A stretch of DNA of 64,000 nucleotides from contig CACRXP010000397.1 in the NCBI GenBank assembly GCA_902702965.1, forward strand, positions 320,699-384,698, written 5' to 3'. The notes below the pieces were generated by a model. That model was not told where the DNA came from and did not search any database. It saw nothing but the letters and a program-made list of their open reading frames with translations. The translations under genes were made by a program, and so were the position numbers. Numbering within the stretch: position 1 is the stretch's first letter; each line of letters opens with the position of its first letter. This document shows, piece by piece, positions 28,481 through 57,120 of the stretch. This stretch comes from Spirometra erinaceieuropaei (Eukaryota > Platyhelminthes > Cestoda > Diphyllobothriidea > Diphyllobothriidae).

Positions 28481-28499
28481 CAGTTTACATCGCCGCGAA

Positions 28500-39700: not shown

Positions 39701-42700
39701 TGCTGGAGACCCCAGTAGGGCAGCTCGGAATCGTCAACGGGATTGACTTCAAGGCGAATCTTGAATATCGGCCCGATGCCTCGTAGATTAACCTGCAATG
39801 GGAGAAGTAGGAGGAGGTTACTCAATAACCCTGTAAAAATTTTGTTGGCGGAATAAATTGCACAGAGGACACTGCGGCTGTCTGGTTGACCATGGTGGCT
39901 ACCTTGAACTCGTCCACATTGCCAGCACGAAACAGTCCCTTCTCGCTTCCGCTTGCACCAAGAATGATTGGGCCGGAGCAACCGTTCACTCCATAAACGA
40001 CCAACACGACCAGCGAATTGTAAGCCGACTCAGAGGTGAAGAGTTGAATCTTCCAGTCGGACTCTACGGTGAGGTGACATGAGTAAGTCGTTAGAAATTG
40101 GCCAACTTTTACTGATTACAGAAATAGTAAAAACCGAAATATCAGAGCTATCCTTTACGCAAAAACAATAAAAACAACAGCCGTGAGCGATACGCCAGTA
40201 AATGTACTAAATAATGCGCAGTCCATTAGGTTTCATGCGTTGTCGTTGGCTATTCATTCCTGAAACATAACTAAGGACCAAATAAAATCCTTCATTTTGA
40301 CCCAACTGTGAAAAGCTCTGTGGCTAGATGGGATTCGAGGCCACGGCAGCAAGGGGAAGGCTTTAGTACAGCCGGCGGAGATAGGTCAGCAGTTAGTGTG
40401 TCTATGGTTGCAGTGCAGAGCTGAAGGCGGGTATAGAAATGAGAATACTGACTACCGTAAACGCACTCGCTACAGATTTTTTCGCTTTATAAATCCTCGT
40501 AGTTGCTGTCCAACTCCTCTCCAAACTCGAGACTATTGTAAACTAGTATCCATTTATGATGCTAACCCGATAGATGCATGCTTTCAGTTGCACATAGAGG
40601 ATGGAATACTAATGTCACTACAAAATTCAAACTGATCTTAACATGGCCACCGTCCTTTAAAAAATCCAGCAAGCGGACACTGTAATTCACTAGGCCTGAA
40701 TTATTTTTGTCAAGCAATTTTGCTAATTACGCCTTTACTTTAAAAGGGACGTTTTTGGAACGGATAAGACATTTAACACGAAAAGAAACAAATTAATTCC
40801 ATAAGCAGCCTGCCACTCCGCATGCCTCTCGGGACTTTAGCGAGGAATCTAATTTTATAGAAATTCAGTCCAGCAGTAATCTTTCGCTAGAATTTAAGGC
40901 CTCCGATTTTGTAAGCATGACTCTGCAGTTGCTACCTTCCACATACAGTCAGGGCTTGTCAAATGCAGACCCCACTAACTCCCTTAAGTAACATCGTTGG
41001 ATACGGCTACAGGATTTTATTCCTTCTATGATCCATAGGTTCACAATTTCCCAACCTTTTAGTCAATCTATAGTTGATCCACCACGAGCTCATATTTCCT
41101 CTAAAGAGCTGTTTATTTTATTTCTACAGCTGGTGTATGCTCAAACGAGACCGTGCATTCTTATGTTACTCACTCGCGGAACTTATATTTGATGCAAGGA
41201 AACATGTAGGTGAACACCTCGAGATCGCGTTTATACGGCTTGCTTGTCTGTCTTTCTGCTCAGTCCGAAAAAAATTGACCAGTCAGACAATTAAGACGTG
41301 CTCACGCCATGTTGAAAATCATACTAAGTTTTTCTGTTCATGCAAACATTTAAAGATGTCTGGACTAGTCACTTATTCTAGTAGCTATCCTTTGCAGCCA
41401 TCTTTTGAAAAGAAATTTTAGGTTTCACCTTTGTCGGACTTCTTTTCAATAGTTCCACTTCTGCAAAAGTGTGGGGTCCCGGCAACCACTGCCGAGGGTG
41501 GGATTCCGGAGGAGATCGACATTTGGCTCAGGCTGTTTTCTGCTGCCTCCGTGAACGACTGTTCGGGTTCTGTCCTCGTCATAATGGAAACATTGTCAAT
41601 TGAACTGGAACGGGACGGATGACAACTTCCTGAATGAGGTGATTTACTCTGGCCATCTAGATTGTCGATTTAAAAAGGCAATATCTAAGGCCCGTACAAC
41701 GAGATAAAGTTTAATCCATTTTCTGCTCCTTAGGTCAAAATTTGTTTTTTATATGTTTCAAAAAAATGAAAAATGAATCGTTCCCTGTAAACTGAATGCT
41801 GCCGCGCCCACCTGCACCGGCGTTAACTCAGACTGAGCACCCCACGTGTGAGCAGAGAGAAAGAAGTTGCTAACTATCCTAAGGTTACGCGAGCATTTTG
41901 GGAGACGTCTAAGCTGTACACCGTGGTTTATTCTTGCAAAATGCAGTACAAACTGCAGACTCGGCTTTTCCCTGAGTCTACGGTCATCGCCGAGTCCTTT
42001 AAACATTTGTCTGTGCTGTTTGAATATTTTAATTTACGAACGAAAGCCAAACACATCCCCTATCGGTACTGACCTCTGTTTTTAAATAAATAAATGTGTA
42101 TATATATATATCTAAATAGATAAGGTGATACCGACAAAGACAAGGGAGACCGGAATAGTCAGTTCTGGCTTATTAGCCGTCATCAGCCAGTCATACCCAA
42201 CCCCAAGTGTGGATCACTTGAGCTTCGAACTCGGGATCTTTGGTCATGGAGTTTGAGGCTCTACCATTGAGCCACGGGTCCGTTGTCCTGTCGGTTGTGA
42301 TCGGGAATATCAATTATGACAGATGGACGCTTACCGATCAGGTTACAGAACATGCTCGTTCTGTTTTGTCTTGGGGCCCGTGATCTTTGGTCATGGAGTT
42401 TGACGCACGGGCCCGTGGCTCAATGGTAGAGCGTCAAACTCCATGACAAAAGATCCCGGGTTCGAATCTCAATTGATCCACACTTGGGGTTGGGTAGGAC
42501 TGGTTGATGACAGCTAATAAGCCAGAAATGGCCATTCCGGTCTCCCTTGTCTTTTTCGGTATCACCTTATCTACATATATCACTAGTCGCTGTGCGAATG
42601 CCTGCGAGAGTTTAAGTATGAGCCCCAAGGCACAACCGAACGAGCATGTTCTGTAACCTGATCGGTGAGCGTTCATCTGCCATAACATATATATATATAT

Positions 42701-43496
42701 AAATTGAAAAACAGGCATCCCAAGAAGTAATATTAGAAAGGTGAAGTTCTTTGGGAAACAGCAAAATTTTATTGTGAATTTTCGAGACTGGTTCCCCAGC
42801 TCGTCTTCAGACAACGGGTGTGCAAAAACAATTAACTTTTAGACTGAGTCTGGCAAAAGGAATCCATGATTGGTTAATGCTGTCATCTCGGGATTGGCTG
42901 ACTCAGTTTGAATCTGTCCTTAACGATTTTGTATGTGGCATCTAAATCGATATGCCGGTTGATGCATGTCTCATCTGAGTGCATTGCCTCCAGGAATTCG
43001 CGGCTTTTTCTTATTTGGCAGGCGCCAACACTGCGAGTGTTCTCCCATGCGAATTTATGCCCAGTGTCTAGTGTGTGCATGGCCAGCAGGGATAGATGGT
43101 CGCGTCTCTTCACCGCTAACTGATGCTCATGTATACGGGTTGAGACAGATTTCCCAGTTTGGCCACAATAAACGGCATCACAACTAGAACACGGGATTTT
43201 GTAGACGACACTTTTTCTTTCGAGGTAGCCGACCCTGTCCTTAGGGTGCACAAGCACTCAGATGAGGCATGCATCAACCGGCATATCGATTTAGATGCCA
43301 CATACTTAATCGTTTAGGACAGATTCAAACTGAGTCAGCCAATCCCGAGATGACAACATTAACCAATCATGGATTCCTTTTGCCAGACTCAGTCTAAAAG
43401 TTAATTGTTTTTGCACACCCGTTGTCTGAAGACGAGCTGGAAAACCAGTCTCGAAAATTCACAATAAAATTTTGCTGTTTCCCAAAGAACTTCACC

Positions 43497-43533
<37 letters not shown>

Positions 43534-46500
43534 GAGAAGGTCGCTAACCGATTAGGTCACTGAATATGACCGCCCGTGGTGGTGTGAAGCCAAATGGAGA
43601 GCCCTTTTTCATTTTGCTAGGGTCGATTTACTGACGAATCGACGCCCGAGGTCCAAAGTACATATTTTAACTAAACCTCATACCACCAGACTTCATTAGT
43701 CGTCCGCCGATGTATGTGCCGGTAGGAAATATTGGTGTCAGGGAACAGCTTGAAGGGTTTGGGAGATAGTTTGGCAGTCGGAGCGAAAACTACTTTCATG
43801 TTGCCTGGCAGCCACGCTGTCAGTCCCTTTCCACCTATACCAAGAAGATCCCTACTAGCAGCCTGCACACGCGTCAAACTGGGCAGCTGCGCTTAATTTG
43901 CTGCTGTAACCACCACTGCGCCCAATGGGATGTTTAATTCACCCAAACCGCCGGTTGTCGTTTTCTCAACTGTCGACTTATGCAGGTACCATTAACCTGT
44001 TGCCCGCTTAATTCAGCCCGTGCCAGTTTGGTACGAGAGCATGGACCCCCCGCATTGCAGGTGGGCACAGAATTAGGGCTGGAGTAGGGAAAAAGACATC
44101 CTCCTGAAGTTAGCGTAAGATCACATGTAGTAGTCCTGGGGCGGGGGCCAACTTCCCGTGTCCGACCACGGTTCTCATTCCTAGCCGACACGTACCCTCC
44201 TTTTCCCAAAGACTACGAGCAAAATGTGAGTCGCTAGCTGTTTGTTGAAGACGACTGCTTGTTAAGGGGTCTCCCCACTTCGGAAGATGGTTAAGAGTCC
44301 TCACAGCCACGCTGTCCGGTGGCGATACGTTAAATGCACTTACATTTAACAACCTCCGGGTACAGACAAACTCCGTCATCGTTGTTCCCGTCCCCATCGT
44401 TGCTGGTTGTGACGAAACCGTTGGGTAAGATGGACAAAAAGAGATTTGGGTTTGCGAATGATTCGAGGACGACAAATCCCTTGGCCTTGTTGCGATTAAC
44501 TCGAAAGTAGCAGGACACACCACCCTCGCCCTAGCAAAGAAAATGAAGCATGAGAAGCATAAACACACGAAAAAAGATTGCTTTAATTATTACGCAGTTG
44601 TAGGCCTCGCTCCCGAGGATGGACAGCCAGACAGGAAGCAGCTTCAGTACATGAATACCATGTTCTCGCCGCTAGACTGACTGAACAATAACATTCGGAG
44701 AATATGCAGTTATTGATAACGGTTATGGCTGTGGCGTGTTGAGGGAGTAGATGTGCTACCTCTTAAAATGCTAACCAGAATTCTGAAATATGTTTTAGGT
44801 TCGGGATGGTTACTTAGGGAGTGTTCGAATACTAATTAACGTGGAACAAAATCTCATGATATTTCAGTTACGGCGGAATACCGGCTTTTGAGCGAGCTCC
44901 TTTTTGGGCGTCTGTAAAAGATACACTCTTGAAAAATGACTTGTTCAGTAGTATGAGTGTTTTCCATCGATTTTCGGTGTTCCCAAAAATCCAAACGTAT
45001 TTTATAAAAAACATGTGCAAAAATATTCTTCCTTGTACCCATCTGGTAACTTCTTCAAGTTTCCTACTTGAAAAGGTAACGTCTGTTGGCCTTAAAAATG
45101 TTTTTCATTTCACGAATTATTTTGAACCTGACCTACCATCACACAAGCATTTGGCGTTTCTAAGATACAAGCTATGTGTTCTCCATGTTAGAAAAATCAT
45201 ACGTTGTTCCACATTATCAAGGATACGATGTTTAGACATTTGTTAGGAAATATACAGTCTAGTATCCGGAATATAAAGCACACGGGTCCCTCCAATTGTA
45301 TTCAGACTTTAAACGAATAGATAAAAAGTGCCTTTTTGTGCCGGAAAGGTGTTATTGAGGTTTTGTAAGTTAGGAAGTTACACGAATGGATGCGAATATG
45401 CAAATCTCAGGTTCTTATTACAAAGAAGGTGAATGCTTGGCATTGAAACGACGCTGTCCCAGTGATCGCGCGTTTTTCTTTGCGGTAGGAATTAACTTCT
45501 AGAAATGTGGACGACCGAACTTTTTAAACGCAAAAATTTATACTTTTTTCAAACACTATGCAAGTGGGAGTAACTGCCCTTAAATAAAGGCAGGAGCTAA
45601 CATTGCGTTAGTTGTTTCTGTCAAAATTAAGCAACATCAGACGGCTAATAACCGCAGAGAACTCAAATAATCACAAAAGTATATTTATTTCATTTTGAGT
45701 GGGATCATCAGAGTTTGGTGGAGAGGCTGTTGACGAAGAGTTGCAATCCCATGGTTCAGGCCTTACTCACAGATTAGGTTTTTTGCATATCCTTATGTAA
45801 GCCTCGTTTAAGCAATCTTTTACCTTCGCCAGCAAGGTCGAGGTTTTAACTTCCTGTTTGGTGAATGTTGACCTCCCCCCTCCACCGCAGTTTGTCAAAC
45901 AGAAGAATGAGAAATCACTATAGCCTGTCTGCTGAAAAGTCACTTTCTGTAAAACAAACTGTCCGAATGACGTAGAGCTCTTTGCGAGCACCGACTGTTT
46001 TCTTTGGCTCATGCGCGAAGTAGCGGTCGAATCCAACCGCATGAGGCATTTGGGCGTGATGCTCCGACCCAGGGCAGAATGCAGAGAGCGGAGGGTGTGC
46101 GCAAAGTCGTCGAGTTTACCTCAAACCGACACCCGCCCAGTGTTGGGCATAAGAGGCTTGACCGTACACGCCCAGCCGCTAGGGCAAAAATAAATGCATT
46201 AAGGGGCAGGTCTGTATAGGTTTTCGAGTTACTTTTTTTCCAGTCAGGTTTTCCCGTCTTCCTTTGTCGAATTTTTGATCCTACCTTGAGAGCATCGTCG
46301 AGGGGCATGTTTGTAACCTGAACCTCCCGTCGTTACTTTCGCCTTTATTCCTTCCATGTGTACGACTGTACTACGCTGAATACCTTGATTTTCCCGTTCT
46401 ACAAAAGCCTCATCATCCATCATTAAGATGCAGTCTTAGCGGATTAGGATTGGCATTCGGCAAAGTTTCGTTTTCTACGCTGCTGATTTGTCACATGTGG

Positions 46501-47791
46501 GATGGGCGTGAAATTCCAGAAGCAGATGAGGTCGGACATGAGAATATGGACCTCGTAAGATCACAAATGACTTCACACAAAATTCCGTTAGGTCCATACT
46601 TCCATGTCCCGAGTTTGGACCGCACACTTGCCCTCTCAACTACAACCCTAGCCGTAATTGTCCTAACCTTAACAGAAACACTAACCCGAGGCCCAACTCC
46701 TCCTAGAAGTAAGGAAAAGACCAAATACACTACGGGGTCTATGCTTCCGTGCAAAGCAGAAAGGGAAAACACGGCAAGTAATTTTTGTTAGTCTGCCTAC
46801 TCACAAAACCTTGGCGGAGAATGACGCCCTCGGCTGCTTTGAAAGTAGGAACGAAATGTGCTAACCAAGACAACTTGTTTAGGCATATACTCCGGGAAAA
46901 GTGATCGCCTATCTGGACGCAGAAAATCCTGGGGATTACTCATTTTCTAACAATTTACAGGAAACAGAATGCCGACGTGAACTAGGATTGGAGGCAGTAC
47001 ACCATTTCTCATCGTGTACCACAAAGTGTGGTCGTTCCGCGACTCCCTGAAAATCATCTTACCCGTCTAGGAAGTTACAAAGTTCTTGCACAGGTTCAGT
47101 CTTCTACTTTCGACGTGACAGTTGGACGAACAGGATGTGAATTTTTACTGTCGGAGCTTTGAGTTAAAGTCACAGCGTCTGTTATTTGGCCAACACTGCA
47201 TTCACACTCAAGTAAACAAGACCGTAAATTTTATTTTTGTATTTGAAACATCTAATACTGGATTGCGAGCACACAAAGCAAGACCTCGTAGTCATCTGCC
47301 TTGTTTGATGACACCGGCTCGGACTGTCTATTGCCAAGTGACAAACAGCTTATATGCACCGCACTTGAATCGCTTTTCTACAGGAGGGATTCAGATCTTC
47401 TCGTCAGGCAGTTTGAATGCTAGCACGCGGATGATATAAAATCCAGATAACCTTCCGAAGCCTGTGTAAAAATAAGAGAAATTAAAACAGTACGAGCACT
47501 TGCCATGATGTCGCATTCTCCGGCGCTAACAATGCGAAGAAAGCGGCCCGGATAAACAACAGACTCGAACATCCGTAGACCTTTCGTTTGCGCGCCCTTT
47601 GTTCTGGGCACGTGGCGTACCCGCCACAACGCATTGCTGTCGCGGGCCCCAGTTGCCCAGGCAAATATCTGTGGAGGTGACACGAGGTCCTCCTTCAGAC
47701 CGGTCGTGAGGGGCTCGCTAATGCTTCCAGGACAGATGGTCTGTTCGTGGTTGGTGCAGAGCATGATGATGCCTTCATTTCGCATGCTGCC
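36574..47791 (-). CDS. PLAT/LH2-domain protein, LOXHD1-like, with beta-trefoil-like N-part; partial
   Basis: PLAT domains are beta-sandwiches that bind membranes or proteins; LOXHD1-type proteins are built of tandem PLAT units. Supported minus-strand exons: 47791-47504, 44530-44344, 41629-41429, 40063-39903, 39792-39700, 37583-37206 and 36737-36574. The first two encode repeats of the type F-R-V...F-E-S...P-G-x-F-L-x-I...G, a beta-trefoil-like pattern. The next is a serine-rich linker, and the last four encode one PLAT unit plus most of a second. Phases agree from 41629 onward. The join from 44344 (phase 1, T) to 41629 (GA) would make a TGA, so an exon between them is missing from my model. 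No start exon or final stop is assured. The gene name is by domain content only. Confidence 0.72.
37206..37583 (-). CDS. PLAT gene, end of PLAT unit 1 and start of unit 2
   Basis: Acceptor ccactcag|GTTATC, donor TTGCAG|GTACAC, 126 codons in phase 0. It starts VIFKNELNQKHLRFDFVGRA (last strands of unit 1), continues through an arginine/leucine-rich linker and starts the next unit with GLVLYRVQLCVLS and HLALFGEFGDTGRRPVAL. LFGEFGDTG is a textbook PLAT signature. Confidence 0.88.
37584..39699 (-). other. Intron of the PLAT gene (2116 bp)
   Basis: Bounded by GTAAAC and ccactcag. No mobile element domain was recognised inside. A 14-bp inverted pair (GGTGAATCGATCACCG near 37930 and CGGTGATCGATTCAC near 37979) lies within it. 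Confidence 0.6.
39700..39792 (-). CDS. PLAT gene, PLAT unit 1, middle
   Basis: Acceptor ccattgcag|GTTAAT, donor CAGCAG|GTAAAC, 31 codons in phase 0. Encodes NLRGIGPIFKIRLEVNP and PYWGLQQ, the L-G-x-x-x-K-I-R-I ... W-x-L stretch of the PLAT fold. Confidence 0.85.
39903..40063 (-). CDS. PLAT gene, PLAT unit 1, first half
   Basis: Acceptor caccgtag|AGTCCG, donor TTCAAG|GTAGCC. Encodes SDWKIQLFTSES, VVLVVYGVNGCSG and GLFRAGNVDEFK. These correspond to the PLAT strands usually written V-F-x-x-L-Y-G-x-x-G-x-T-G and F-x-x-G-x-x-D-x-F. Confidence 0.85.
41429..41629 (-). CDS. PLAT gene, serine-rich linker exon
   Basis: Acceptor cattcag|GAAGTT, donor CAAAG|GTGAAA, phase 1 at both ends. Encodes SRSSSIDNVSIMTRTEPEQS and IEKKSDK. 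Joining to the next exon gives GAG (E) followed by SDWKIQLF, a good PLAT start. Low complexity means it is supported by borders and phase, not by homology. Confidence 0.55.
42121..42407 (-). repeat. tRNA-like SINE unit with hammerhead core, minus copy
   Basis: In its own orientation the unit reads GGGGCCC, AACGAGCATGTTCTGTAACC, then a tRNA-like head with A-box-like GTGGCTCAATGGTAGAGC and B-box-like GAGTTCGAAGC, then GGTATGACTGG, a hammerhead core and GTCTTTGTCGGTATCACC. A further 27-base inverted scrap (42381-42407) adjoins it. Box positions suggest RNA polymerase III transcription. Schistosome Sm-alpha repeats are a known precedent for a hammerhead in a Pol III-type repeat; membership in that family is my inference. 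Confidence 0.75.
42158..42186 (-). ncRNA. Hammerhead ribozyme core in SINE-like repeat (minus copy)
   Basis: CTGATGA, stem II (GGCT-AATA-AGCC) and GAAC. Stem I is formed by GACTGG upstream of the core and CCGGTC downstream of the cleavage position. The last core base is C instead of A (GAAC for GAAA), and stem III is decayed compared with the plus copy, so this copy is probably inactive. Confidence 0.6.
42408..42690 (+). repeat. tRNA-like SINE unit with hammerhead core, plus copy
   Basis: It starts at the tRNA-like head (GGGCCCGTGGCTCAATGG, B box GGGTTCGAATCTC at 42468-42480) and runs through the hammerhead to GGTATCACCTTATCT. It then continues into GAGCCCCAAGG and ACGAGCATGTTCTGTAACC, the block that precedes the head in the minus copy. 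The two copies are therefore circular permutations of one unit, as expected from a tandem array. It ends in a TA run that abuts the Penelope inverted repeat. Confidence 0.78.
42504..42538 (+). ncRNA. Hammerhead ribozyme core in SINE-like repeat (plus copy)
   Basis: TTGATGA (first core base T instead of C), stem II AGCT-AATA-AGCC, GAAA, then the palindrome ATGGCCAT as stem III and TTCC across the expected cleavage position. Stem I pairs GACTGG with CCGGTC. The palindromic stem III needs a second molecule or a very small loop. The single core change probably reduces activity. Confidence 0.65.
42688..42703. repeat. TA dinucleotide run, left of Penelope inverted repeat
   Basis: A run of about eight TA units between the SINE-like copy and the Penelope inverted repeat. 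A longer TA run closes the other side (43502-43532). Such runs are frequent Penelope insertion sites. Confidence 0.8.
42776..42810 (-). ncRNA. Hammerhead-like motif, Penelope left arm
   Basis: CTGAAGA (fits CUGANGA), stem II GAGCTGG-GGAA-CCAGTCTC with one bulge, GAAA, then ATTC. The four bases AATT formed by GAAA and TT give a palindromic loopless stem III, and C is the expected cleavage base. Stem I can form between TTGT before the core and ACAA after it. Confidence 0.65.
43426..43460 (+). ncRNA. Hammerhead-like motif, Penelope right arm
   Basis: The inverted partner of the motif at 42776-42810: CTGAAGA, stem II GAGCTGG-AAAA-CCAGTCTC, GAAAATTC. It differs in the stem II loop only (AAAA against GGAA). 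The core is intact in both, so the motif is under the same constraint or the copies are young. Confidence 0.65.
43502..43532. repeat. TA dinucleotide microsatellite
   Basis: About fifteen TA units directly after the right Penelope arm. Confidence 0.9.
44344..44530 (-). CDS. PLAT gene, beta-trefoil-like exon b
   Basis: Acceptor tttgctag|GGCGAG, donor TTAAAT|GTAAGT. Encodes GEGGVSCYFRVNRNKAKGFV, then VLESFANPNLFLSILPNGFV and a GDGNNDDG loop. The F-R-V ... L-E-S ... P-x-x-F-L-x-I ... G pattern repeats that of exon a, supporting one beta-trefoil-type domain split over exons. Confidence 0.75.
44545..46284 (-). other. Intronic stretch of the PLAT gene
   Basis: It contains repeat D and otherwise nothing recognised. 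A 91-codon minus-strand frame at 45767-46042 has no domain. Confidence 0.4.
44765..45110 (+). repeat. Interspersed AT-rich repeat D, copy 1
   Basis: AATGCTAACCAGAATTC, then an imperfect ATATGTTTT-GGTT block, ..., CATCGATTTTCGGTGTTCCC and AAAACATGTGCAAAAATATT. The same blocks in order recur at 63218-63570. Identity is roughly 60-70 percent by eye with several gaps. A third weaker match may exist at 33580-33650. Confidence 0.55.
46285..46317 (-). CDS. Candidate 33-bp microexon of the PLAT gene
   Basis: On the minus strand, gttcag|GTTACA...CTCAAG|GTAGGA encloses exactly 11 codons (VTNMPLDDALK) that would fit phase 0 between the exons at 47504 and 44530. The acceptor has no pyrimidine tract, so this may be a chance arrangement. 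Microexons are known in flatworms. Confidence 0.28.
47504..47791 (-). CDS. PLAT gene, beta-trefoil-like exon a
   Basis: Acceptor cttcacacag|GGCAGC after a strong pyrimidine tract. 96 codons in phase 0, including FAWATGARDSNALWRVRHVP and MFESVVYPGRFLRIVSAGEC. The only border that keeps phase with the next exon is ATCATG|GCAAGT, a GC donor with otherwise perfect consensus. The start of the gene lies upstream and was not found. Confidence 0.72.
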
Positions 47792-47999
47792 CTGTGTGAA
47801 GAGGGAGAGGGGGTAAAATAAAGGCTTGGGATTTCCCGTCAAAGCAAAAGTGTTCAGAGATGCTGACTGAAACAGTGGGCTTGAATATTCACTCCAGTGT
47901 TTGGTAAGACATGCGAATAGTACCCCCGTTCCATTAATACAAGTGACCTTGCGCAAAATTCCAGTAATGATACCCAGTACCGTATCCTTGTTCCAACTT

Positions 48000-48110
48000 T
48001 AGCCTAATCCTAACCTCAACCTTGGACCTAGTACTAAACTTAATCCCAACCCTGACTTTGACTTTAAGCCTAGTCCCCTGGAATTTAGCGCAAGGCCACC
48101 CGCCTTACGG
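48000..48110. repeat. CCCTAA-like tract with shared GC-rich block, second copy
   Basis: Several CCTAA/CCCAACCC words are followed by CCCCTGGAATTTAGCGCAAG and GGCCACCCG. The partner is at 7305-7350 on the same strand, so the order of telomere-like words then GC block is conserved. Confidence 0.55.
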
Positions 48111-49420
48111 GGGAGTTCCCATTTTCGTGTACTAACCAGTTTCTTTGTAGGTAATACGTTAATTTATGTATTAATCATGCCTAGGGACGGGTGTCATGAT
48201 TCCTAGTGCGAGGGCGCGTTCTACCTGCTGGGACTGGAGACAAAATGCGTTCAGAGAGGGCGCTGCACCGCGTCTCAGGTACTTTCGTACGAGACGGGAT
48301 AACGGCTCTCCAACCACTCGCACACTTTTTTAAAGTCATTTTCACTGAACTCATAAACGGAGCTTTTCTATAGCTTTTGTGCGCGGAAATGCCTTTTTGT
48401 ACAGTTTAAATGCCAGCTTTCAAGAAAGAAGATAGTTTAGTTGTCAAAGTCGTCCAAATACTTGAGTTAGTGCTTTTTAATTCCTTCAGGAAGTAATTGC
48501 AAGCTTGGCGTAAGTTAGCATGCACTAAGGTCTATAGATGCAGACTGAAAGTTTCTGTATAAATATTTAAGCTGAAACTGAATGACCACATAACTGCCGA
48601 TAGGCCGGTAGTAGTATATTTTAGCGTTAGAGGATACCATAGTTGACTGCACAGGTACTAGCTAAAAGCCCAGACACGCGTGTTGCGCTGTTATTCTGTC
48701 GCTGCATGGCACAGCCGCAAGGGGCTCGAGTACCTGTGCTGCTAATATGGTTTTTTGTAACCCTAAAAAATACTTGAGTTTTCTAGGCAGTATCTGAATC
48801 TTTCATCTTATGAACTTTTTCTGAGCTACATTGTATCTGTTTTAACTAGAAAATGTCCAGCTACTTTCCTATTTGTAGACAAATTTTCCCTATATCCACG
48901 AATCATTACAATAGTGATACATCACGTTGCATGAAAACAAATAATTCATTACTTTAGATTCATAATTTTGGAGGACGCACTTCCACATAAATTAAATATA
49001 TAAAGGGATTTCCTGTGGACTCCTTCTAATAGGCATTGTTAAGCTCAAGCAGACACTGAAGATCGGCGCCCAAATGAATGTTGCAAAAGAATAAATTTTC
49101 TTCTGAGTGTTATTTTCATTTAAAGCTGCATTCCCCGTGCTGCAGCGCAATAAGAAAGCTATTCTTTTTTTTCAAACTGATTGGTTTTTTAATTACCTCC
49201 GAAAATTTTTTAGTTATGACAGACTGTCACAATCATTAGCTGTGCATACTCCTATTTGCAGGTCACATTTGATGTTTGCTGCACTGACTGTCGTAACTGT
49301 ACCTCTAAGTTGCGCAACATAACTGACAAATTACCAGAAATTACAGTTCGACCGTCACAACCGGTGATGTCTTCCGTTCGCCCCACGGGGTGGGCGCAGT
49401 GTCGCTGGCTCACACGTGAA
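48110..49420. other. Upstream flank of the PLAT exons; nothing recognised
   Basis: If the PLAT gene is complete its 5' exons should be here or further right, but I see no minus-strand exon with domain support. Confidence 0.35.
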
Positions 49421-49424
49421 TTAG

Positions 49425-49512
49425 TTCACAGTGACGCAGACTCACACTGCATCCACCACACTGTCTCCTCCCTCACTAACCCATCAGCTCTGACAGGAAT
49501 ATGTCAATACGC
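49425..49512 (+). repeat. GC-rich interspersed repeat, module A copy 2 (left part)
   Basis: GTGACGCAGACTCACACTGC, CATCCACCACACTGTCTCC and CTCCCTCACTAACCC match the beginning of module A at 10637 and 60230. It stops before the GGCAGTGGCCG block. Confidence 0.45.
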
Positions 49513-50270
49513 CCGAAGGTAATCTTGGACGATAATCTGGGAGTGGATGTGTCCTCATCGCAAAAACATACCTCAGGATAAAATTAAATTTTTTGCGAGC
49601 AGTGCGTTGAAGTGGAATCACTACCAAACTTCGCGAAAAAGAGCAAAGACCTTTTAATTGCCCTTAACTAAGACACCGCATGTTCACTGGCTGAAATACA
49701 GTAACAGAACGCAGACCCACAGTCATCGTTGCATATGCGTTCAGTCAACAGATACCTAATATCTTGCGTATTTATTTGCGACTTATCAGTATGTACTTTG
49801 GACCAGCCATTTTATTATCGAAGAGATTAAAGAGATTTGCCATCCAGTTGTTTTTAGACGAGTGCAATCTCGATTATTATTATTAAAATTTCTGAGTAAG
49901 TCCGCTTTACAATTTATGACCCATATGGCCTTTAACACACTCACAAAACACACCATTAAAAATCCCAGCAACGGTTATTCAACGGTTAACTTCTTGGGTG
50001 GTAGCAAGACGAAATATTCGTTTGTATATACTGCATATTATTGCTTGATTTTGTAGCTGCAAACGCTACTCTTTGATTCGGCGAAGTTGATGGTGTAGCC
50101 GGCCGGATGAGCGCGCTTCCAACGATCTAATTCTGGGTTCGTTCAGTAATGAAGATTGAAACCTTAAATACCAGAGTACTGCATTTAACATTGTCAGAAA
50201 AATAAGTCTTCATATATATACATATGTATGAAGATCAGAGGTGGTATGCATTCAGAGCCGATATAATGAG

Positions 50271-50390
50271 AAAAGGAAGAGGTTCTTCGGAAAAATCTGG
50301 CTGGTGACACCAATCCTACGTCAAATAAAATGAAAATGACGACAGGTTGGTGTCACTAGCTCGATTTTTCCGAAGAACCTCTTCCTTTTT
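50271..50390. repeat. Long imperfect hairpin, arms about 46 bp
   Basis: Left arm 50271-50316 (AAAAGGAAGAGGTTCTTCGG ... GGTGACACCAATC) pairs with right arm 50344-50390 (AGGTTGGTGTCACTAGC ... CCGAAGAACCTCTTCC). Only a few bases mismatch, and the spacer is about 27 bases. TA-rich runs flank both sides. It could be the fold-back end of a transposable element next to the Penelope copy that follows. Confidence 0.75.
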
Positions 50391-50439
50391 CATATATATA
50401 TTAATTAGAAAGGGATAAATCCGTTGGGAAACTCAACAA

Positions 50440-50960
50440 TTTTTATTCTGCAAATTCGTGACATTCGTTCTCCAGGTCGTCTTCAGACATGTGGAGAATA
50501 TACCAAAAAGTTAGCATTTTTAAAAGGAGGCATAAAATCGATACCGTCCTTTAAATCCTACCAATAAGTTATGGCCTTGGCTGACATCTCGTGTTGATTG
50601 GTTGCGGTCTCTTCCACCTTCCCCTGGGATTATTGTAAACGGTGTCTAGAACATTATGCCGGTTAATGCATTTTGAGTAGAGTATATGGCCTCCAAAAAT
50701 TCACGGCCTTTTTAGATGGACAAATACCAACAATGCGAGTTTTGTCCCAAGCAAATTTATGGCCAGTTTCCAATGTGTTCATGGTCTCGCCCCCTCACTG
50801 CCAGTTGGTGTTCGTGTATGCGTGTAGGGGCCGATTTTCTAGTTCGACCACAGTAAACTGCACTGCAGGTGTCAAGCGGAATATTATAGACGACCTCTTT
50901 CTTATCTGAATATCTCAACCTATCTCAAGGGTGTACGAGATGGTTGCGTAGTGTGATCAT
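50440..50960 (-). mobile_element. Penelope-like element, GIY-YIG end (AAUU family), decayed
   Basis: On the minus strand: KKEVVYNIPLDTCSAVYCGR, RIHEHQLAVRGRDHE, and a C-terminal KFAWDKTRIV-like block with frameshifts. It is related to the copy at 42.7-43.5 kb (same Y-x-I-P-x-x-x-C-D/S-A-V-Y-C-G motif) but more diverged. A degenerate hammerhead core lies at its 3' end. Confidence 0.75.
50450..50486 (-). ncRNA. Degenerate hammerhead motif, Penelope AAUU family
   Basis: CTGAAGACGACCTGGAGAAC is followed by a GAATTTG in place of GAAAATTC. The position and first half match the motifs at 42776 and 43426; stem II and the GAAA box are eroded, so no activity is expected. Confidence 0.45.
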
Positions 50961-51189
50961 CGGTCTGTGCGTCACCTGTGTTTTATGTTTCCTCAGATGT
51001 CTTTCGACGAGTTCAGACATGTATTTACTGTACCGAAGTATTCCCTAGGCTGTCTGTTTGGGCCCTTGATCAGAACAAACTAGTTCCTTGTCTTTTCCTC
51101 TTAATTCCTGTTGTCTCATGCATAGCGTACCAAATCTCTGGCGTGCCCGTTTTGGGAAACGAGTCTGAACAAGTAGTTAAGTTCTATTA

Positions 51190-51650
51190 GGTAATTATTG
51201 TTGTCTGATCAAGCGAAGCCAGTAGGGGGTGTCTATGATTTCAGCAAGAAAACCGGAGATAGGTGGTCCTGTGGGATGTTGACGTGCATCGCGTGGCGAT
51301 GTGTGATCGCAGTCTGGACAATGAACACTGGTTTGACTTTGACGGTGTCCAAGTGCTCAGTAGAGCTGGAAGCAGACTGGCGAGAGAAATAATTGAGGCC
51401 TGACAAACAAACATCAACTCCACCAACCGCAGCGTTGACCTTTCGGCCGCATATGAGGCCTCCAGACAACACTTAGGCGCGAGGGGAGGCCCAATGAAGA
51501 TATAGAATGATGACCGTCTCAGGAGTGAGTGAGAAGGACCTATTTGAGCCGTGTATCCCTCATATTCCCTATATCTGATGATGCGCTCGAGTACGAGTGT
51601 GAAACGTTAGATGAATAAATCATTCTCTCCAGAGCTCGCCTTACCATCTT
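51190..51650 (+). mobile_element. Penelope-like element, GIY-YIG C-terminus with hammerhead end
   Basis: One frame reads HWFDFDGVQVLSRAGSRLA, REIIEA, stop, QTNINSTNRSVDLSAAYEAS. These are the family's H-x-F-D-F...V-L-x-R-A-x-x-R-x-x-R-E-x-x-E-A-W...N-S-x-N-R-x-x-D-L block. The 3' end carries a hammerhead core and ends ATGAATAAATCATTC. The RT and first half of the endonuclease are not recognisable. Confidence 0.75.
51575..51610 (+). ncRNA. Hammerhead ribozyme core at Penelope 3' end
   Basis: CTGATGA (51575-51581), stem II GCGCTCG-AGTA-CGAGTGT (fully paired with two G-T wobbles), GAAAC (51601-51605) and GTT. The palindrome ACGT forms a loopless stem III, with T at the cleavage position where C is commoner. 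All invariant core bases are present. Confidence 0.72.
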
Positions 51651-51659
51651 TAAACCTAA

Positions 51660-53260
51660 CACCTGGGATCAACATTATATATGTAGGTTTTACAAACTAC
51701 ATGAAATTCCCGTCTAAAACTATGAAAAGAATTCCAAAACGTGGTCACTTATTGTAATTTTGAACGTTGGTATAGTGCCAGCCGGCATCGAGAACGAGCT
51801 ACCACCGCAATATCCGGGAGCATGCCCACGGATGCCACCCATCCATAATTGACGGTTTGGGTTCAGTGGACTCCACTTAATTGACCTACTTCGTAAGCCA
51901 AAGATGTCAAGCTTGATTCAGCGTCTGCCCTGTATAAATTAATTAACGGCGGAGAGCCACTAGATAAAAGTTTCCTCAACGTTTGGCCTCATACATTCCC
52001 GTTCCGACGCTCACGATATTCCAATAGTCGTTAAGCAATACTTATTCGTCTTGTCTCTTGATTTTTCGTCGCCCATACCGTCGAAGACATCGGCACGCCT
52101 GTTTCCCCTGCTGTCTGATACTCGCCACTAAAGGGACGGTTGGCTCCTTATCTGGTCCAGTGGGACAACGTTTTCAGGTATCATCAGCGCCGTCCTTGGC
52201 ATCTTGCTCGCACGACAGCGATTGGTATGAATATGCGTCGTCAACCTGGTCCCAAATCGGATGCTCTCGTCGCGTCATTCTCAAGAGGCCGTCGACACAC
52301 AGTATCTTCGTTTTAGTCACCCTCAGTCCACGGACGGTCAACCTGCATTACGCGTTACGACCACCATCGGTCCTTGGCTGACTTTCTCGTTGTCAAGTTA
52401 CCTACAAGTTTGTGTAGGTTACCTGTCATAACTGTCAATCACTGGACTATCTCACTGTATGTCCCAAGTGAAGGATATCCTCTTAACCTTGTAACTGTGA
52501 ATTCTGAGGGTAAAATCTCACAGGCTCAACGGAGCTAGATAAGGGGAAAAGAAAGCAAAGAATAATTTATGGCAATGCATGCAACATTTTTCTGGTCTCC
52601 AACACTTGCCTCGAAAAAGCGATCTGCAGAATCAACCAGTGGCCCGACTAACTGGATTACACCTTACCATGAATAGGAGATTACGCATGGCAGTGGGAAC
52701 AAACAGAAACAGTAGTAAACAAATGCTCAACCATCACTGAGCTCTACGGCCTAATTTTGCAGGTCAGTGTATGCCTTTACAAACTTCTAGACAGAGATAA
52801 AACCAGTTGTGATCGATTTTGTTCTTTCTCTATCAGAATTAACTCCCTAATCTTTCAAATTTGGCTTGCGCTACTGTCAAACCAGGAAAACAAGAGGATT
52901 ATTGGAATCTCAAGAAGACAAAGCCTGTCTGCTAGGTAAACTGCAACTGCCTGGTGCTTTTGCAGGTGGCGAAGATTTCAGTAAGGGATGGCTGCTAAAT
53001 GAGCAAGCCCTCGAGTCTGATAAATGCGCTGCCGTGAACTATGCGGCAGCAATGCCTTAGGGCAGGACTAGACTTCGATCGTATCACGAGTCCCAATGGT
53101 CTTCTAGCATGACGAATATTGCCCATAAGTCAACGGACCTTGCGCGACTGCTGCGCAGCAGTAATGAAATGTTAAACTGGTATGCCGCGGCGGCAGCAGC
53201 GACACGAACTTTAGGCAATCTTTCATTCACGGTAGAAGCAAACAGGCGAGTTCCAGGAAG
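51660..53260. other. No gene recognised
   Basis: Contains a 107-codon plus-strand frame (52058-52381) and other short frames without domains. No splice-bounded exon was found. Confidence 0.4.
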
Positions 53261-53263
53261 CAG

Positions 53264-53425
53264 TTCAGAAGACGAAGATGTGATCAATGGAACAAGAAAT
53301 TTATTGGCCCGACGTTTCGGATTCTCACTCGAACACATCGTCAGAGACAGTCGCAGATAAGGGTGATGGTGGCACACGGAGTGCAGTAATTATAGCACAT
53401 GGTTGCCGTGGGACCATATGCGTGC
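53264..53425 (-). repeat. Inverted 5' arm of the Penelope copy
   Basis: The reverse complement matches 54796-54957: GCATATGGTCCCACG, TACTGCACTCC-GTGTGCCACCA-like block, hammerhead core and CTTCGTCTTCTGAA. Identity is about 75 percent by eye. Arms with the 3' end inverted at the 5' side are known for Penelope-like elements. Confidence 0.82.
53311..53344 (-). ncRNA. Hammerhead ribozyme core, Penelope 5' inverted arm
   Basis: On the minus strand CTGACGA, stem II GTGTTC-GAGTGA-GAATCC (one mismatch), GAAAC and GTC. The palindrome ACGT again forms stem III, and C is at the cleavage position. A short stem I can form between GTCT and GGGC across the core using G-T pairs. Confidence 0.68.
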
Positions 53426-53753
53426 TTGTATAAATCATCCAACTCCTGAGGTTCTGTCTCTAAACCTACTTTACGTTCGACGTAACAATCTGCAGGAGGT
53501 AAAGGACACGCCAATGGGTTCGCCGATTCCAGGAATTATAGCCGAGGCGATCCTACAACAGTTGGAGTCGCTGGTTTTCCGACCCCAAAGACCAAAAATT
53601 CTGGGCTCGGTATGCGGATGGAACCTTCATCGGCATCGAGCAGGATCAGGTCCTCCCAGACACTCAATTTACGATAGAGATAGAAAACAACCAGCTGGTC
53701 TTTCTTTATGCCCTCATCTGCCGCAAAAATTGTGGTTGCTTAAAAACCAAATC

Positions 53754-53925
53754 TTTCAGGAAAGCTTGATCCAAATGTGATTAAACTCGCGTCGTCCGGC
53801 GGGGCCTCGTAGCTCAGGTGGTTAGATCGTTGGCTGTACTGAAGCCTTCCCCTTACTGCGTGGGTTCGAATCCCACCGAGGCGCCGAGTTTTTCACAGTT
53901 GAGTCAATATGAATTTCAGGAAAGC
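53754..53925 (+). mobile_element. tRNA-derived SINE with 12-bp target-site duplication
   Basis: A 148-bp insert (53766-53913) sits between two exact copies of TTTCAGGAAAGC (53754-53765 and 53914-53925). It carries a tRNA-like body with A box TAGCTCAGGTGG (53810-53821) and B box GGTTCGAATCC (53863-53873). GCCTCG near the start pairs with CGAGGC after the T arm (GTGGG/CCCAC). In the host frame the duplicated bases encode FRKA, the Penelope thumb motif, which is thus present on both sides. It is a SINE insertion, not a functional tRNA gene: the anticodon arm (GGCT-GTACTGA-AGCC) and variable region are abnormal. Confidence 0.88.
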
Positions 53926-54876
53926 GACAAATAAGATGCAAATACTGAACTTCAACAGCAACCATCGGATCAGTCACAAACGTGGTTGCGTAAGGGCGCT
54001 GTACCTGCGTGTTGAGATGCATTGCGGTGAAATGGAAGAGAGAGTTGCTAAATTACAATAACTTCGACGGGTACTGAGAGCCAATGGCTGCCCACGCAAC
54101 TCTGTCAACCAGTGCAAACGAAAACGACACCAGAGACAAAATCCATCCAGTCCCAAATCTTGGAGGGCTCTTCCGGAAGCCGTCAGTCATCTTCTCACTC
54201 CACTTGGAGTTGGGGTTGCACACACGCCGGAAGCAACCATCAGGCCCCAAGTCATGTGGCTGAAAGACCCATTGCCACGGCAGGAAACTTCAGGAGTCGT
54301 TTACCGGATTTGATGCAGTTTTGGTCAAAGCAACAACGTCGAAGAAACTGGGCGATTACTCCATTCGCTAATTGCCGAGCACGCAGCATCAGTGAGGCGG
54401 AAGAACGCTAGCTCTCAGTCGGCGACTCAGTCGACGGGATCCGGCCATATTTTCAAGGTTCAAGAGGCCGAAATCCTTTCAAGGGGTGACAAGCGCGTGA
54501 GCCGCGAGCTGCCCGGGTCATGGTTCTCAGGTCCGCAATTCATCAACAAGTCCATAATGACCTCCCGTTACCGTATCTGTGTTGAGATTTTTCCTGGGCA
54601 GGGGAATCAGTCGCATGAGGAGGGCGTGGGCGAGCAATAATCCCGGTGACAGTGAGCCAATTTGCCGAGCACTCATCAAACCAGCATCCAACATGGACGA
54701 GGAAATCGCGGCCATTAACAACTCGGACGCGGGCTGAAAACCATCATCGCATCAATTACGATTCCCGGTTGTGATTGCGAGAGTTCTTAATTACAGTACG
54801 CATATGGTCCCACGACGGCCACGCGCTATATATACTGCACTCCTTGTGCCACCAGCCCCTTTATCTGTGACTGCCT

Positions 54877-54910
54877 CTGATGATGGGTTCCAATGAGAAT
54901 CCGAAACGTC
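54877..54910 (+). ncRNA. Hammerhead ribozyme core, Penelope 3' arm
   Basis: CTGATGA, stem II GGGTTC-CAATGA-GAATCC (six pairs, one G-T), GAAAC and GTC. Stem III is the palindrome ACGT without a loop. Stem I can form between GACTGCCT before the core and AGACAG after it with one mismatch. This is the best core in the window: all invariant positions fit. Confidence 0.78.
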
Positions 54911-54959
54911 AGACAGATAGATTTTTTGTTCCAGTAACCGCATCTCCGTCTTCTGAATC

Positions 54960-56340
54960 ATTCATTCAATGAGCCCTTCCTTACCTCCGCTTTTCGTTAA
55001 TTTATGACTCAGCGGAGTTTCTGGACGATCGGATGCTCCTGGTTCGGACGCTCCGGCGTACCTGTCGCGATGCACAGGCACAAAACTTGCCCCAGTAAGT
55101 ATAAGGTCGTAGAATGCACGTAAATGATTATAGTACGTTGCTACAAATCTAGGGGCTCCGACTTTCACCATACTACCAATCTCTCCTTGGCCGTCCCAGT
55201 GCTCCCATTATAGCACGAAGGTCTTTTGCAGTGCTTTTAATGGGTTCTCAAGTATGTCCGTGACAGAATCCTCCCCACGACTGATGGGATTGTCGAGAGG
55301 TTTACTAAGCAAAACAACCGTCTGATTTCACGAAAGTTGCATCTTACTGGATTCCGAATATCCTCAATAAGAATAAAATCTACATCTCACTACAACTGAA
55401 GCAGAGACAAAACTCTAACTTATACCTTAACCATGAGACAAAATTTGCATGATGTGGCGGGGCATTTTCATCTCAGCGCATCTGTAGTCGGGAAGAGTCC
55501 TCTTCCTTCCGCTGTCCGCAGATACTGCCAGGTGAAAACGCGTTAAAAATATACAGACCGCCTTCTTCATTGGTCCATATTTCCTCTCTGGCGTAGACTG
55601 AGCTACCGTCACCTTGAATTGCTAAATGACCTTCCTAATGTCTCTTCGACCGGTGACCATCCTCGCAAACAACCTGTCCTCACGCTCAAAAAATTATAAA
55701 GTTGCCGGACTCGCCTAGAATATTCACCCCCATTTCAGATTTCACTGCATGCACCGCCGTACAATCTAAGTCAACCTCACTTTTCTGGCGGTTAGGACGG
55801 GGCAGTAACATGTGAGGCCTGGAGGGGCTAACATTAATCAAGCTGTCTTTACTCCTCTTCAGAACTAAGAGGCGCGGTTTACGTCTGGTTGCTAAGCTAC
55901 GATTGCGAAAGGTCGTTTAGAACATTTGGCGCTTTGACGACTTACAGAATAGCAGTCAACTGAACTTTTGGTCAAAACATACACCCACTCGTGCTAATAG
56001 ATTGTTAAAGGTATAGCATGGATTATAACACTTTAATTATAAGAAAATTCATTATTTGAGTTTTGCCGTTCTGTACGGCCAACGAGATCGAACTACGGGA
56101 GCACGAATTTGAACGTGTAGGGCAGGTTGCAAATAAACTTGGCCTATCAAATAGGTGGAGTATGGGTTAGGAATGTAGGCAGACATGCCATCCGACCTGT
56201 GCTCAGTCACCTGACGGAGGCAGAATCGTTGCGAAGTATAGATAACGGGAAAAATGAGGTCGTATTAGGCGGGAGCTAACAATGCAACCCTTGTTTTAGA
56301 GAGGGAAAGCAATAATAAAACTGGTCAGGCACCAGAAAAT
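54960..56340. other. No gene recognised
   Basis: Short frames only. No domain, repeat partner or splice-bounded exon was found. Confidence 0.4.
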
Positions 56341-56345
56341 TCTGT

Positions 56346-57120
56346 TTATTGTTCTGAGCTCTCGAACTCGCACAGGGGTCCATCGTCAGAGATGGTAACA
56401 GCAACAGAATAAGCGACAGTTGTAGGGCTTGTTAACCAATTATCGATCGATTGCGCAGGATTGAGGGTGACTGCGCAGGGCTCTGTATGCCGGCGCCAGA
56501 TCGATAAATCGGTTGAATGAGTTCCTATCTGAGGTCCAGGCTTCAATCCGTCCTCGGTCTGTTTTGTTTCCAGCTTGGGCGAATAACTTAGTGGCTGCGA
56601 GGTTGAACCCAAACCCACTTTGTAGAAGTGGGCAGCCACCAGTGATAATTCTTCGCTCGTCGTACAACCAGTTTATGTTCCTGTATGCGTGGTCCGAGCA
56701 TGCATCCAGTTTGACCTATGTAGTTACAAGGACAGTGTTGGCACGAGATGCGTTACACTACCCAATATGGCCCTTCAGGACTTCATCGGTCCTTAATTTT
56801 CATGACCTTGCTGTGCATAATGGCTTTGGACCGGTATGAAATTCCAGCACCTAGCTCCGCAGTAATGCGCTTCGTTGCTTTTGAAACGTCCTTAATATAT
56901 GACAGAAAATGTCATATCCTTGGTGGCGTTGTTTAGGGCCTCTGGGGGCGACCGCGTAGCGACAACTTATAAATGCCTTCAAATAGCCATTCTGCATAAT
57001 TTGTTCGGGAAGATAACGGGCCTCACGCCTGCGTACATCTTGCTCAGCAACATGAAGTTGCAAACAAAGACGACCGATAAGCTGACCATTGGAGATTGAA
57101 CAGCGGTTGGTGCCGTGATA
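56346..57120 (-). mobile_element. Penelope-like element, thumb and GIY-YIG (AGCU hammerhead family)
   Basis: On the minus strand the thumb tail reads RRREARYLPEQIMQNGYLKA, followed by a linker and the GIY-YIG domain in broken frames: ISCQHCPCNYIGQTGCM, RIQEHKLVVR and then AQAGNKTDRGRIEAWTSDRN with FIDLAPAYRALRSH. The 3' end carries a decayed hammerhead. The C-terminal block is close to the family at 27-28 kb (AGNKTEREVLEAWVSD). Confidence 0.85.
56356..56389 (-). ncRNA. Decayed hammerhead core, Penelope AGCU family
   Basis: CTGACGA, an imperfect stem II (GGACCC-CTGTGC-GAGTTC) and GAGAGCTC. A GAAA core would give GAAAGCTC with stem III palindrome AGCT. Here the third base is G (GAGA), so this copy is probably inactive. 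Confidence 0.5.

What the first reader, a model, noticed from the sequence alone, without database searches (positions are those of the whole stretch)
42776..56389. Seven hammerhead cores on Penelope-like ends, each family with its own palindromic stem III
Cores at 42776-42810 (-), 43426-43460 (+), 50450-50486 (-), 51575-51610 (+), 53311-53344 (-), 54877-54910 (+) and 56356-56389 (-) follow CUGANGA, stem II, GAAA. The bases after GAA are self-complementary and loopless: ACGU at 51.6, 53.3 and 54.9 kb, AAUU at 42.8 and 43.4 kb, AGCU (inferred) at 56.4 kb. A loopless palindrome fits folding of two molecules together. Hammerheads in Penelope-like elements are established; family-specific palindromes side by side in one locus would be worth describing.
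Basis: partly seen in the sequence, partly recalled or inferred. Interest (0 to 1): 0.82.

Follow-up and report, generated by a model that had tools for sequence, protein, structure and literature searches.

The report
Minimal hammerhead ribozymes on tapeworm Penelope elements
Old jumping genes in what is probably a tapeworm genome carry tiny self-cutting RNA motifs of an already described kind, and in several of them the motif overlaps the likely start of the element's own gene, which may explain an odd extra base.

Summary
The motifs are real but of a known kind. Four of seven sites pass a strict descriptor (core, stem II, GAA, self-complementary 4-mer); shuffled windows give 0.05. 53.3 kb has a full core but a weak stem II; 56.4 kb reads GAG for GAA; 50.4 kb has lost stem II and palindrome. 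The seven sites are five insertions: 42.8/43.4 and 53.3/54.9 are inverted pseudo-LTR pairs. ACGU occurs in two families, so "each family its own palindrome" is overstated. No Rfam hammerhead model matches. Minimal hammerheads of Penelope-like elements, thought to act as dimers, are published. In the four T copies it makes A9-U10-G10.1 an ATG; the frame so opened at 53.3 kb matches a Spirometra gene model at 30/35 residues. This agrees with the lizard element PAc, whose ORF begins at stem II. The expected cut lies 25 nt past that ATG and before the element's tail, so the RNAs copied into DNA were uncut there. The host is probably a diphyllobothriidean tapeworm. The genome-wide covariation test could not be run. 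Cleavage is untested.

The parts
42776..42810 (-). Minimal hammerhead motif C3 to H17, 3' pseudo-LTR of element A; extra base C10; stem II 7 bp with one bulge; AAUU; stem I five pairs in a row, one of them a wobble
43426..43460 (+). Same motif in the inverted 5' pseudo-LTR of element A
42702..42729 (-). 28-nt tail after the 3' pseudo-LTR of element A, absent from the inverted copy; ends in a (TA)n run
42883..43257 (-). C-terminal Penelope-type GIY-YIG endonuclease fragment of element A; its stop is 72 nt before the motif
   Evidence: no Pfam match
50450..50486 (-). Decayed motif (CTGAAGA and the following C kept, stem II and palindrome lost), 82 nt after the frameshifted endonuclease stop
   Evidence: not found by model R1
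51575..51608 (+). Hammerhead motif with U10 (ATG), ACGU, H17 = U, stem II 7 bp, stem I weak (4 of 6); 69 nt after the endonuclease stop at 51503 (an earlier in-frame stop lies inside the fragment at 51401)
53311..53344 (-). Hammerhead motif with U10 (ATG), ACGU, one broken stem II pair; inverted 5' pseudo-LTR of element B
53084..53338 (-). Open frame from the ATG (A9-U10-G10.1), 84 codons; first 35 residues match Spirometra P0019 at 30/35; includes the tail at about 53263-53234
54877..54910 (+). Hammerhead motif with U10 (ATG), ACGU, stem II 6 bp, stem I 5 of 6; 3' pseudo-LTR of element B, no tail
53493..54592 (+). Broken RT, linker and endonuclease fragments of element B, with a tRNA-like sequence at 53803-53884 between RT and linker
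56356..56389 (-). Motif with U10 (ATG), core GAG instead of GAA, AGCU; 50 nt after the endonuclease stop; stem II 5 of 6 pairs in the layout, though the lone stem II stretch does not fold into it
56473..57063 (-). Linker and endonuclease fragments of the element that ends in the 56.4 kb motif

Best explanation
These are minimal type I hammerhead motifs in the pseudo-LTRs of several decayed, 5'-truncated Penelope-like retroelements, probably of a diphyllobothriidean tapeworm. Stems I and II and the catalytic core form within one copy; stem III is only a 4-nt self-complementary sequence, so an active fold would need a second copy. One extra base (U10, or C10 in one family group) sits between CUGANGA and stem II. 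In the U copies A9-U10-G10.1 is an ATG that probably starts the element's ORF, as in the Anolis element PAc. Shown here: motif, position, stems, palindromes, extra base, inverted pseudo-LTRs and tails. Inferred: that the RNA cleaves, that it does so as a dimer, that the ATG is used. If it cleaves after H17 it cuts 25 nt past the ATG and upstream of the inferred reverse-transcription start, so cut RNA loses its start codon; the genomic copies whose ends can be set carry sequence beyond the cleavage site, so their templates were uncut there.
For: 4 full motifs against 0.05 expected in shuffles. Model R1 from the T copies finds 43.4/42.8 at E 0.0009/0.002. Endonuclease stop to C3 is 72, 69, 82 and 50 nt at 42.8, 51.6, 50.4 and 56.4 kb. 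Pairs on four copies: 79.2% of 48 cells paired against 15.9-45.8% when the helices are slid; 13 of 500 shuffles reach it. Inverted pseudo-LTRs and an optional tail of 28 nt or about 31 nt as in PMC3846280. Tail similarity between families: 13 of 2000 shuffles as good. ATG frame at 53.3 kb: 30/35 residues shared with P0019. [quoted passage not shown] 14 of 18 protein homologues bear an organism name, all of them Spirometra, Sparganum, Schistocephalus or Dibothriocephalus.
Against: No Rfam hammerhead match. No Pfam match for the five PLE protein pieces given. Two of seven copies have a broken core or stem II, a third a weakened stem II; the lone stem II stretches of 53.3 and 56.4 kb fold only at -1.6 and -0.5 kcal/mol, the latter not into the hammerhead stem. 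The count of pairs with changes on both sides is not above shuffles (3 against 2.3, 200 of 500). The 53.3/54.9 differences fall 10/6/5 on codon positions 1/2/3, no third-position excess, so these two copies show no coding constraint. The C10 group has ACG, not ATG, and the 51.6 kb frame stops after 9 codons. No cleavage data.
Confidence: 0.85

Rival explanations
1. The conserved block is kept mainly as coding sequence and/or as the binding and start site of the PLE reverse transcriptase; the hammerhead core is an inactive relic in these families.
For: ATG frame shared with P0019; in PAc the first 172 nt of the ORF are needed in the template and HHR mutants insert normally; C10 is reported as detrimental in a viroid hammerhead (PMC3705267).
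Against: Stem I and stem II pair in families with different letters; core letters and GAA are kept upstream of and within the frame; the pair 42.8/43.4 has a stem I of five pairs in a row.
Confidence: 0.25
2. Chance matches to CTGANGA ... GAA in repeat-rich DNA.
For: CTGATGA with a following GAA also occurs in a SINE-like repeat at 42186, and the core pattern once in a viral contig (L001).
Against: 4 against 0.05 expected; similar position after the endonuclease; cross-family model hit.
Confidence: 0.03
3. The ribozymes work in trans as two separate molecules joined by the 4-nt palindrome.
For: Palindromes are loopless; no close same-strand tandem pair in the window.
Against: Computed free-duplex energy is +2.2 (AAUU), -1.7 (ACGU), -2.5 (AGCU) kcal/mol, very weak without linkage, coaxial stacking or protein; PLEs are described as tandem or partly tandem, which puts two motifs in one RNA (PMC11167929).
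Confidence: 0.15

Closest known systems
Minimal type I hammerheads of Penelope-like elements (Cervera and de la Pena 2014; Lunse, Weinberg and Breaker 2017; neither held here, known through passages of PMC7761336, PMC6155905, PMC6466107)
   Same: Pseudo-LTR location, core, stems I and II, lack of an internal stem III, short palindrome suited to a dimer.
   Different: Probable tapeworm families; extra base at position 10. Whether that base is in the published consensus could not be read.
PAc hammerhead, Poseidon element of Anolis carolinensis (PMC11167929, main text read)
   Same: Stems I and II described, no stem III named; ORF begins at stem II; cut site 26 bp after the start codon (25 nt here); tail 3' of the motif; AT-rich target.
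   Different: PAc is biochemically tested; the copies here are decayed and untested. The PAc sequence itself was not seen.
CChMVd (+) viroid hammerhead with an extra A10 (De la Pena and Flores 2001, seen as cited in PMC3705267)
   Same: One extra base between A9 and G10.1; U there raised the trans-cleaving rate 3-4 fold, C was detrimental.
   Different: Viroid RNA, not a retroelement; no start codon there as far as seen.

Membership tests
Hammerhead ribozyme (canonical, three stems) | CUGANGA and GAA core | tested here: met
   5 of 7 copies; 56.4 kb has GAG, 50.4 kb no clear register
Hammerhead ribozyme (canonical, three stems) | Stems I and II | tested here: met
   42.8, 43.4 and 54.9 kb: stem II 6-7 bp, stem I 5 of 6; 51.6 kb stem II 7 bp, stem I 4 of 6; 53.3 and 56.4 kb weaker; 50.4 kb not
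Hammerhead ribozyme (canonical, three stems) | Stem III within one molecule; Rfam model match | tested here: not met
   Only a 4-nt palindrome, no loop; no Rfam match. So not filed as a canonical hammerhead
Minimal PLE-type hammerhead (Cervera/Lunse) | Core plus stems I and II, no internal stem III, in pseudo-LTR of a PLE | tested here: met
Minimal PLE-type hammerhead (Cervera/Lunse) | Cleaves RNA as a dimer | not testable with these tools
   Needs bench work; self-complementary 4-mer present in 6 of 7 copies
Minimal PLE-type hammerhead (Cervera/Lunse) | Tandem copies on one strand | tested here: inconclusive
   No tandem pair seen: same-strand neighbours are 2.9-8.1 kb apart and paired copies are inverted. 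The elements here look 5'-truncated, so this does not speak for intact ones
Penelope-like element | GIY-YIG endonuclease fragment upstream of the motif | tested here: met
   tblastn among window pieces, and homologue P0017 named GIY-YIG domain-containing protein; Pfam scan negative
Penelope-like element | Inverted 5' pseudo-LTR and optional ~31-bp tail | tested here: met
   Two of five insertions; definition in PMC3846280
Penelope-like element | Telomerase-like RT | tested here: inconclusive
   RT fragments at 27.2-27.7 and 53.5 kb match each other, Pfam negative; assignment partly recalled

The most novel reading that the evidence does not exclude
The extra base at position 10 exists because the ribozyme core doubles as the initiation codon (A9-U10-G10.1) of the retroelement. 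Cleavage 25 nt later removes the start codon and parts the pseudo-LTR from the reverse-transcription start, so the motif works as a switch between translatable mRNA and cut RNA, triggered by the element's own protein or by pairing of two copies. The arrangement is shared by lizard and tapeworm Penelope elements.
Probability: 0.2. Interest if true: 0.65.

Novelty: new member of a known kind. Interest (0 to 1): 0.33.

Why it matters
The role of hammerheads in Penelope-like elements is called unknown in a review of which passages were seen (PMC7761336). If the ribozyme core and the start codon are one and the same in distant animals, that gives a concrete, testable idea of what the ribozyme does (decide between translation and other fates of the RNA), and explains a deviation from the consensus core. 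The palindromes alone add little beyond what is published.

Tried and rejected
Rfam scans of the whole window (two) and of two short stretches: no hammerhead. Pfam on seven pieces: matches for 2 of 7, the KH piece and the LINE-type RT; none for the five PLE pieces. PDB sequence searches with two PLE pieces: none, and one match at E 0.42. Viral contigs by protein: none; by pattern: one hit, in what reads like a phage lysis-type gene region (that label is recalled, no tool named it), with no stem II seen by eye, rejected as chance. The 27-28.7 kb element shows no motif downstream of its endonuclease. The SINE-like copy of CTGATGA at 42186 is followed by a hairpin and GAA, but the next four bases (CTGA) are not self-complementary; rejected. 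Covariation of the palindrome could not be tested: the inner pair is A-U, C-G or G-C, but there are only three to four independent cases, one of them with a broken core. The papers Cervera 2014, Lunse 2017 and Arkhipova 2017 are not held; what is said of them is from citing papers or their titles.
Full report
WHAT WAS CHECKED. All seven sites begin with CTGANGA on the stated strand. Laid out by hand in one script: 42.8 and 43.4 kb read CUGAAGA-C-stem II (7 bp, one bulge)-GAA-AAUU-C with a stem I of five pairs in a row, the last a wobble. 51.6 kb reads CUGAUGA-U-stem II (7 bp)-GAA-ACGU-U with stem I 4 of 6. 54.9 kb reads CUGAUGA-U-stem II (6 bp)-GAA-ACGU-C with stem I 5 of 6. 53.3 kb is the same type with one broken pair in stem II and a stem I of two wobbles and two Watson-Crick pairs. 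56.4 kb has GAG in place of GAA, then AGCU and C, stem I 3 of 6; its stem II has 5 of 6 pairs in the common layout, but that stretch folded alone does not adopt it (-0.5 kcal/mol). 50.4 kb has lost stem II and the palindrome; the script used one register only, and by eye another register does not restore a palindrome either.

CHANCE. A descriptor scan finds four motifs in 64 kb on both strands. One hundred dinucleotide-preserving shuffles give 1.5 sites per window for core plus stem II, and 0.05 with the palindrome; none had H17 and 4 of 6 stem I pairs as well. All four hits use the option of one extra base after CTGANGA. A covariance model from the four T-type copies (A2; R1), two of which are weaker than the descriptor asks, finds its own four members and, independently, 43.4 and 42.8 kb at E 0.0009 and 0.002. 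It does not find 50.4 kb and lists no further match up to E 10. On A2, 79.2% of the 48 cells pair, against 15.9-45.8% in slid structures; 13 of 500 shuffles reach that. The number of pairs with changes on both sides (3) is not unusual (200 of 500 shuffles). Rfam gives no hammerhead in any of four scans. That is what I would expect of motifs without stem III (inference), and it means they are filed here as the minimal PLE type, not as canonical hammerheads.

WHAT CARRIES THEM. tblastn among pieces of the window places Penelope-type endonuclease fragments upstream of the motifs at 42.8, 50.4, 51.6, 54.9 and 56.4 kb on the same strand. The endonuclease stop lies 72, 82, 69 and 50 nt before C3 at 42.8, 50.4, 51.6 and 56.4 kb (stops; the last three differences taken from its coordinates; at 51.6 kb there is also an earlier in-frame stop inside the fragment, and 50.4 and 56.4 kb are frameshifted). 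At 54.9 kb no clear stop could be set. Of 18 homologous proteins found with two endonuclease queries, 14 bear an organism name: Spirometra, Sparganum, Schistocephalus or Dibothriocephalus (12 of 12, 2 of 6). So the window is probably from a diphyllobothriidean tapeworm; the species is not known. Pfam found nothing in the five PLE pieces given.

ANATOMY. The 42.8/43.4 and 53.3/54.9 motifs are inverted duplicates (338 bp at 87% including the (TA)n ends; 163 bp at 82%). 43.4 ends in CTTTCTAAT followed by (TA)n, whereas 42.8 has 28 more bases before its (TA)n; 54.9 ends at TCTTCTGAA, whereas 53.3 goes on. The two extra stretches resemble each other (CTTCYTGGRA...GCCTGTTT; 13 of 2000 shuffles score as high). 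This fits the inverted pseudo-LTR and optional 31-bp tail described for rotifer Penelope elements (PMC3846280, 12 of 25 passages). In the lizard element PAc the tail corresponds to the sequence between two internal reverse-transcription start sites, with initiation most often 111-118 bp into the ORF (PMC11167929, main text read). Counted from A9 the tail-less ends here fall at +72 and +75 and the tailed end of 42.8 at +103 (offset 109 less 6).

THE EXTRA BASE. Six copies have one base more than the consensus between A9 and stem II: C in 42.8 and 43.4 kb; U in 51.6, 53.3, 54.9 and 56.4 kb. At 50.4 kb stem II is too decayed to say, but the base at that place is C. A chrysanthemum viroid hammerhead has an extra A there; U in its place raised the rate 3-4 fold and C was harmful (PMC3705267, passages). 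In the four U copies A9-U10-G10.1 is ATG. The frames read MRSSTSVKR*MNKSFSP, MCSSENPKRRANKFLVPLITSSSSE, MGSNENPKRQTDRFFVPVTASPSSES and MDPCASSRAQNNKQNFLVP (51.6, 53.3, 54.9, 56.4). Residues 1-35 of the 53.3 kb frame match P0019, a Spirometra gene model that also holds an RT domain and so looks like a piece of PLE joined to a LINE, at 30 of 35. It was the only protein at E up to 10 among 12 candidates. [quoted passage not shown] Here the distance from the ATG to the expected cut is 25 nt in the copies with an 18-nt stem II stretch. Against it: the C group reads ACG; the 51.6 kb frame stops after 9 codons; and the 53.3/54.9 differences fall 10, 6 and 5 on codon positions 1, 2 and 3 of 28 each, so these dead copies show no coding constraint.

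HOW IT PROBABLY WORKS. Inferred steps: the pseudo-LTR is transcribed in tandem elements; two motifs in one RNA share a 4-bp stem III; cleavage after H17 cuts 25 nt past the ATG. A free 4-bp duplex is computed at +2.2 kcal/mol for AAUU, -1.7 for ACGU, -2.5 for AGCU, so two unlinked molecules are an unlikely active form for the AAUU family. In PAc the ribozyme cut only when the protein was added, and ribozyme mutants inserted normally. The anatomy here agrees: in the two pairs where ends can be set, sequence continues about 43 to 77 nt past the cleavage site, so those templates had not been cut at that site.

WHAT IS KNOWN. Minimal type I hammerheads in pseudo-LTRs of PLEs, lacking helix III and thought to act as dimers, are described in PMC7761336 and PMC6155905 and mentioned in PMC7229834 (passages), citing Cervera 2014 and, in PMC7761336, Lunse 2017 (not held). 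A palindromic sequence for such dimers is discussed in PMC6466107 (passages) and in the legend of supplementary Figure S8 of PMC3088659 (passages). The title of Lunse 2017 itself says these variants cleave RNA as dimers. In Spirometra and Sparganum Penelope elements make up about 10% of the genome, near 198,000 elements (PMC8166898, passages), so several families within 14 kb is no surprise. Two searches aimed at an extra base or a start codon in this setting list 10 and 5 papers; those of which passages or text were seen (PMC3088659, PMC3705267, PMC6155905, PMC10085705, PMC8490949, PMC11167929) did not state the A9-U10-G10.1 reading there, though PMC11167929 comes close to it. The others were seen as listings only, and most subscription papers are not in the library, so no claim of absence from print is made.

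VERDICT. The overlap with the start codon is the more interesting part.

Noticed in passing
window 42117-42573: Two inverted copies (92% over 167 bp) of a SINE-like repeat with a tRNA-like stretch; its body holds CTGATGACGGCTAATAAGCCAG, a hairpin that looks like a hammerhead start but has no palindrome in register.
   Followed up: partly
window 42645-43568: Both outer flanks of element A carry (TA)n and then similar sequence in inverted orientation, as if it had gone into or between two copies of the same TA-flanked repeat.
   Followed up: no
window 50261-50399: A 139-bp inverted repeat (hairpin, 81% by blastn to itself) directly beside the 50.4 kb element end.
   Followed up: no
window 53803-53884: tRNA-like sequence (Rfam tRNA 28.4 bits, cut-off 29) inside a Penelope element; the stretch 53832-53913 matches 40291-40373 inverted (84%): perhaps another SINE.
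   Followed up: no
window 27181-28720: Long Penelope-type RT, linker and endonuclease stretch, frames broken, with no hammerhead motif found downstream.
   Followed up: partly
window 13631-14002: Reading frame on the minus strand with a KH domain of the KHDC4/BBP type, probably an exon of a splicing factor 1 gene (that name is recalled).
   Followed up: no
window 29266-30660: 464-codon open frame with an RVT_1 domain, the longest in the list; by reading a LINE-type reverse transcriptase.
   Followed up: no
L001 5228-5261: The core pattern with GAAACGTCAGAC also occurs in a viral contig, by reading in a phage lysis-type gene region without a stem II: a reminder that the pattern alone is not evidence.
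   Followed up: partly
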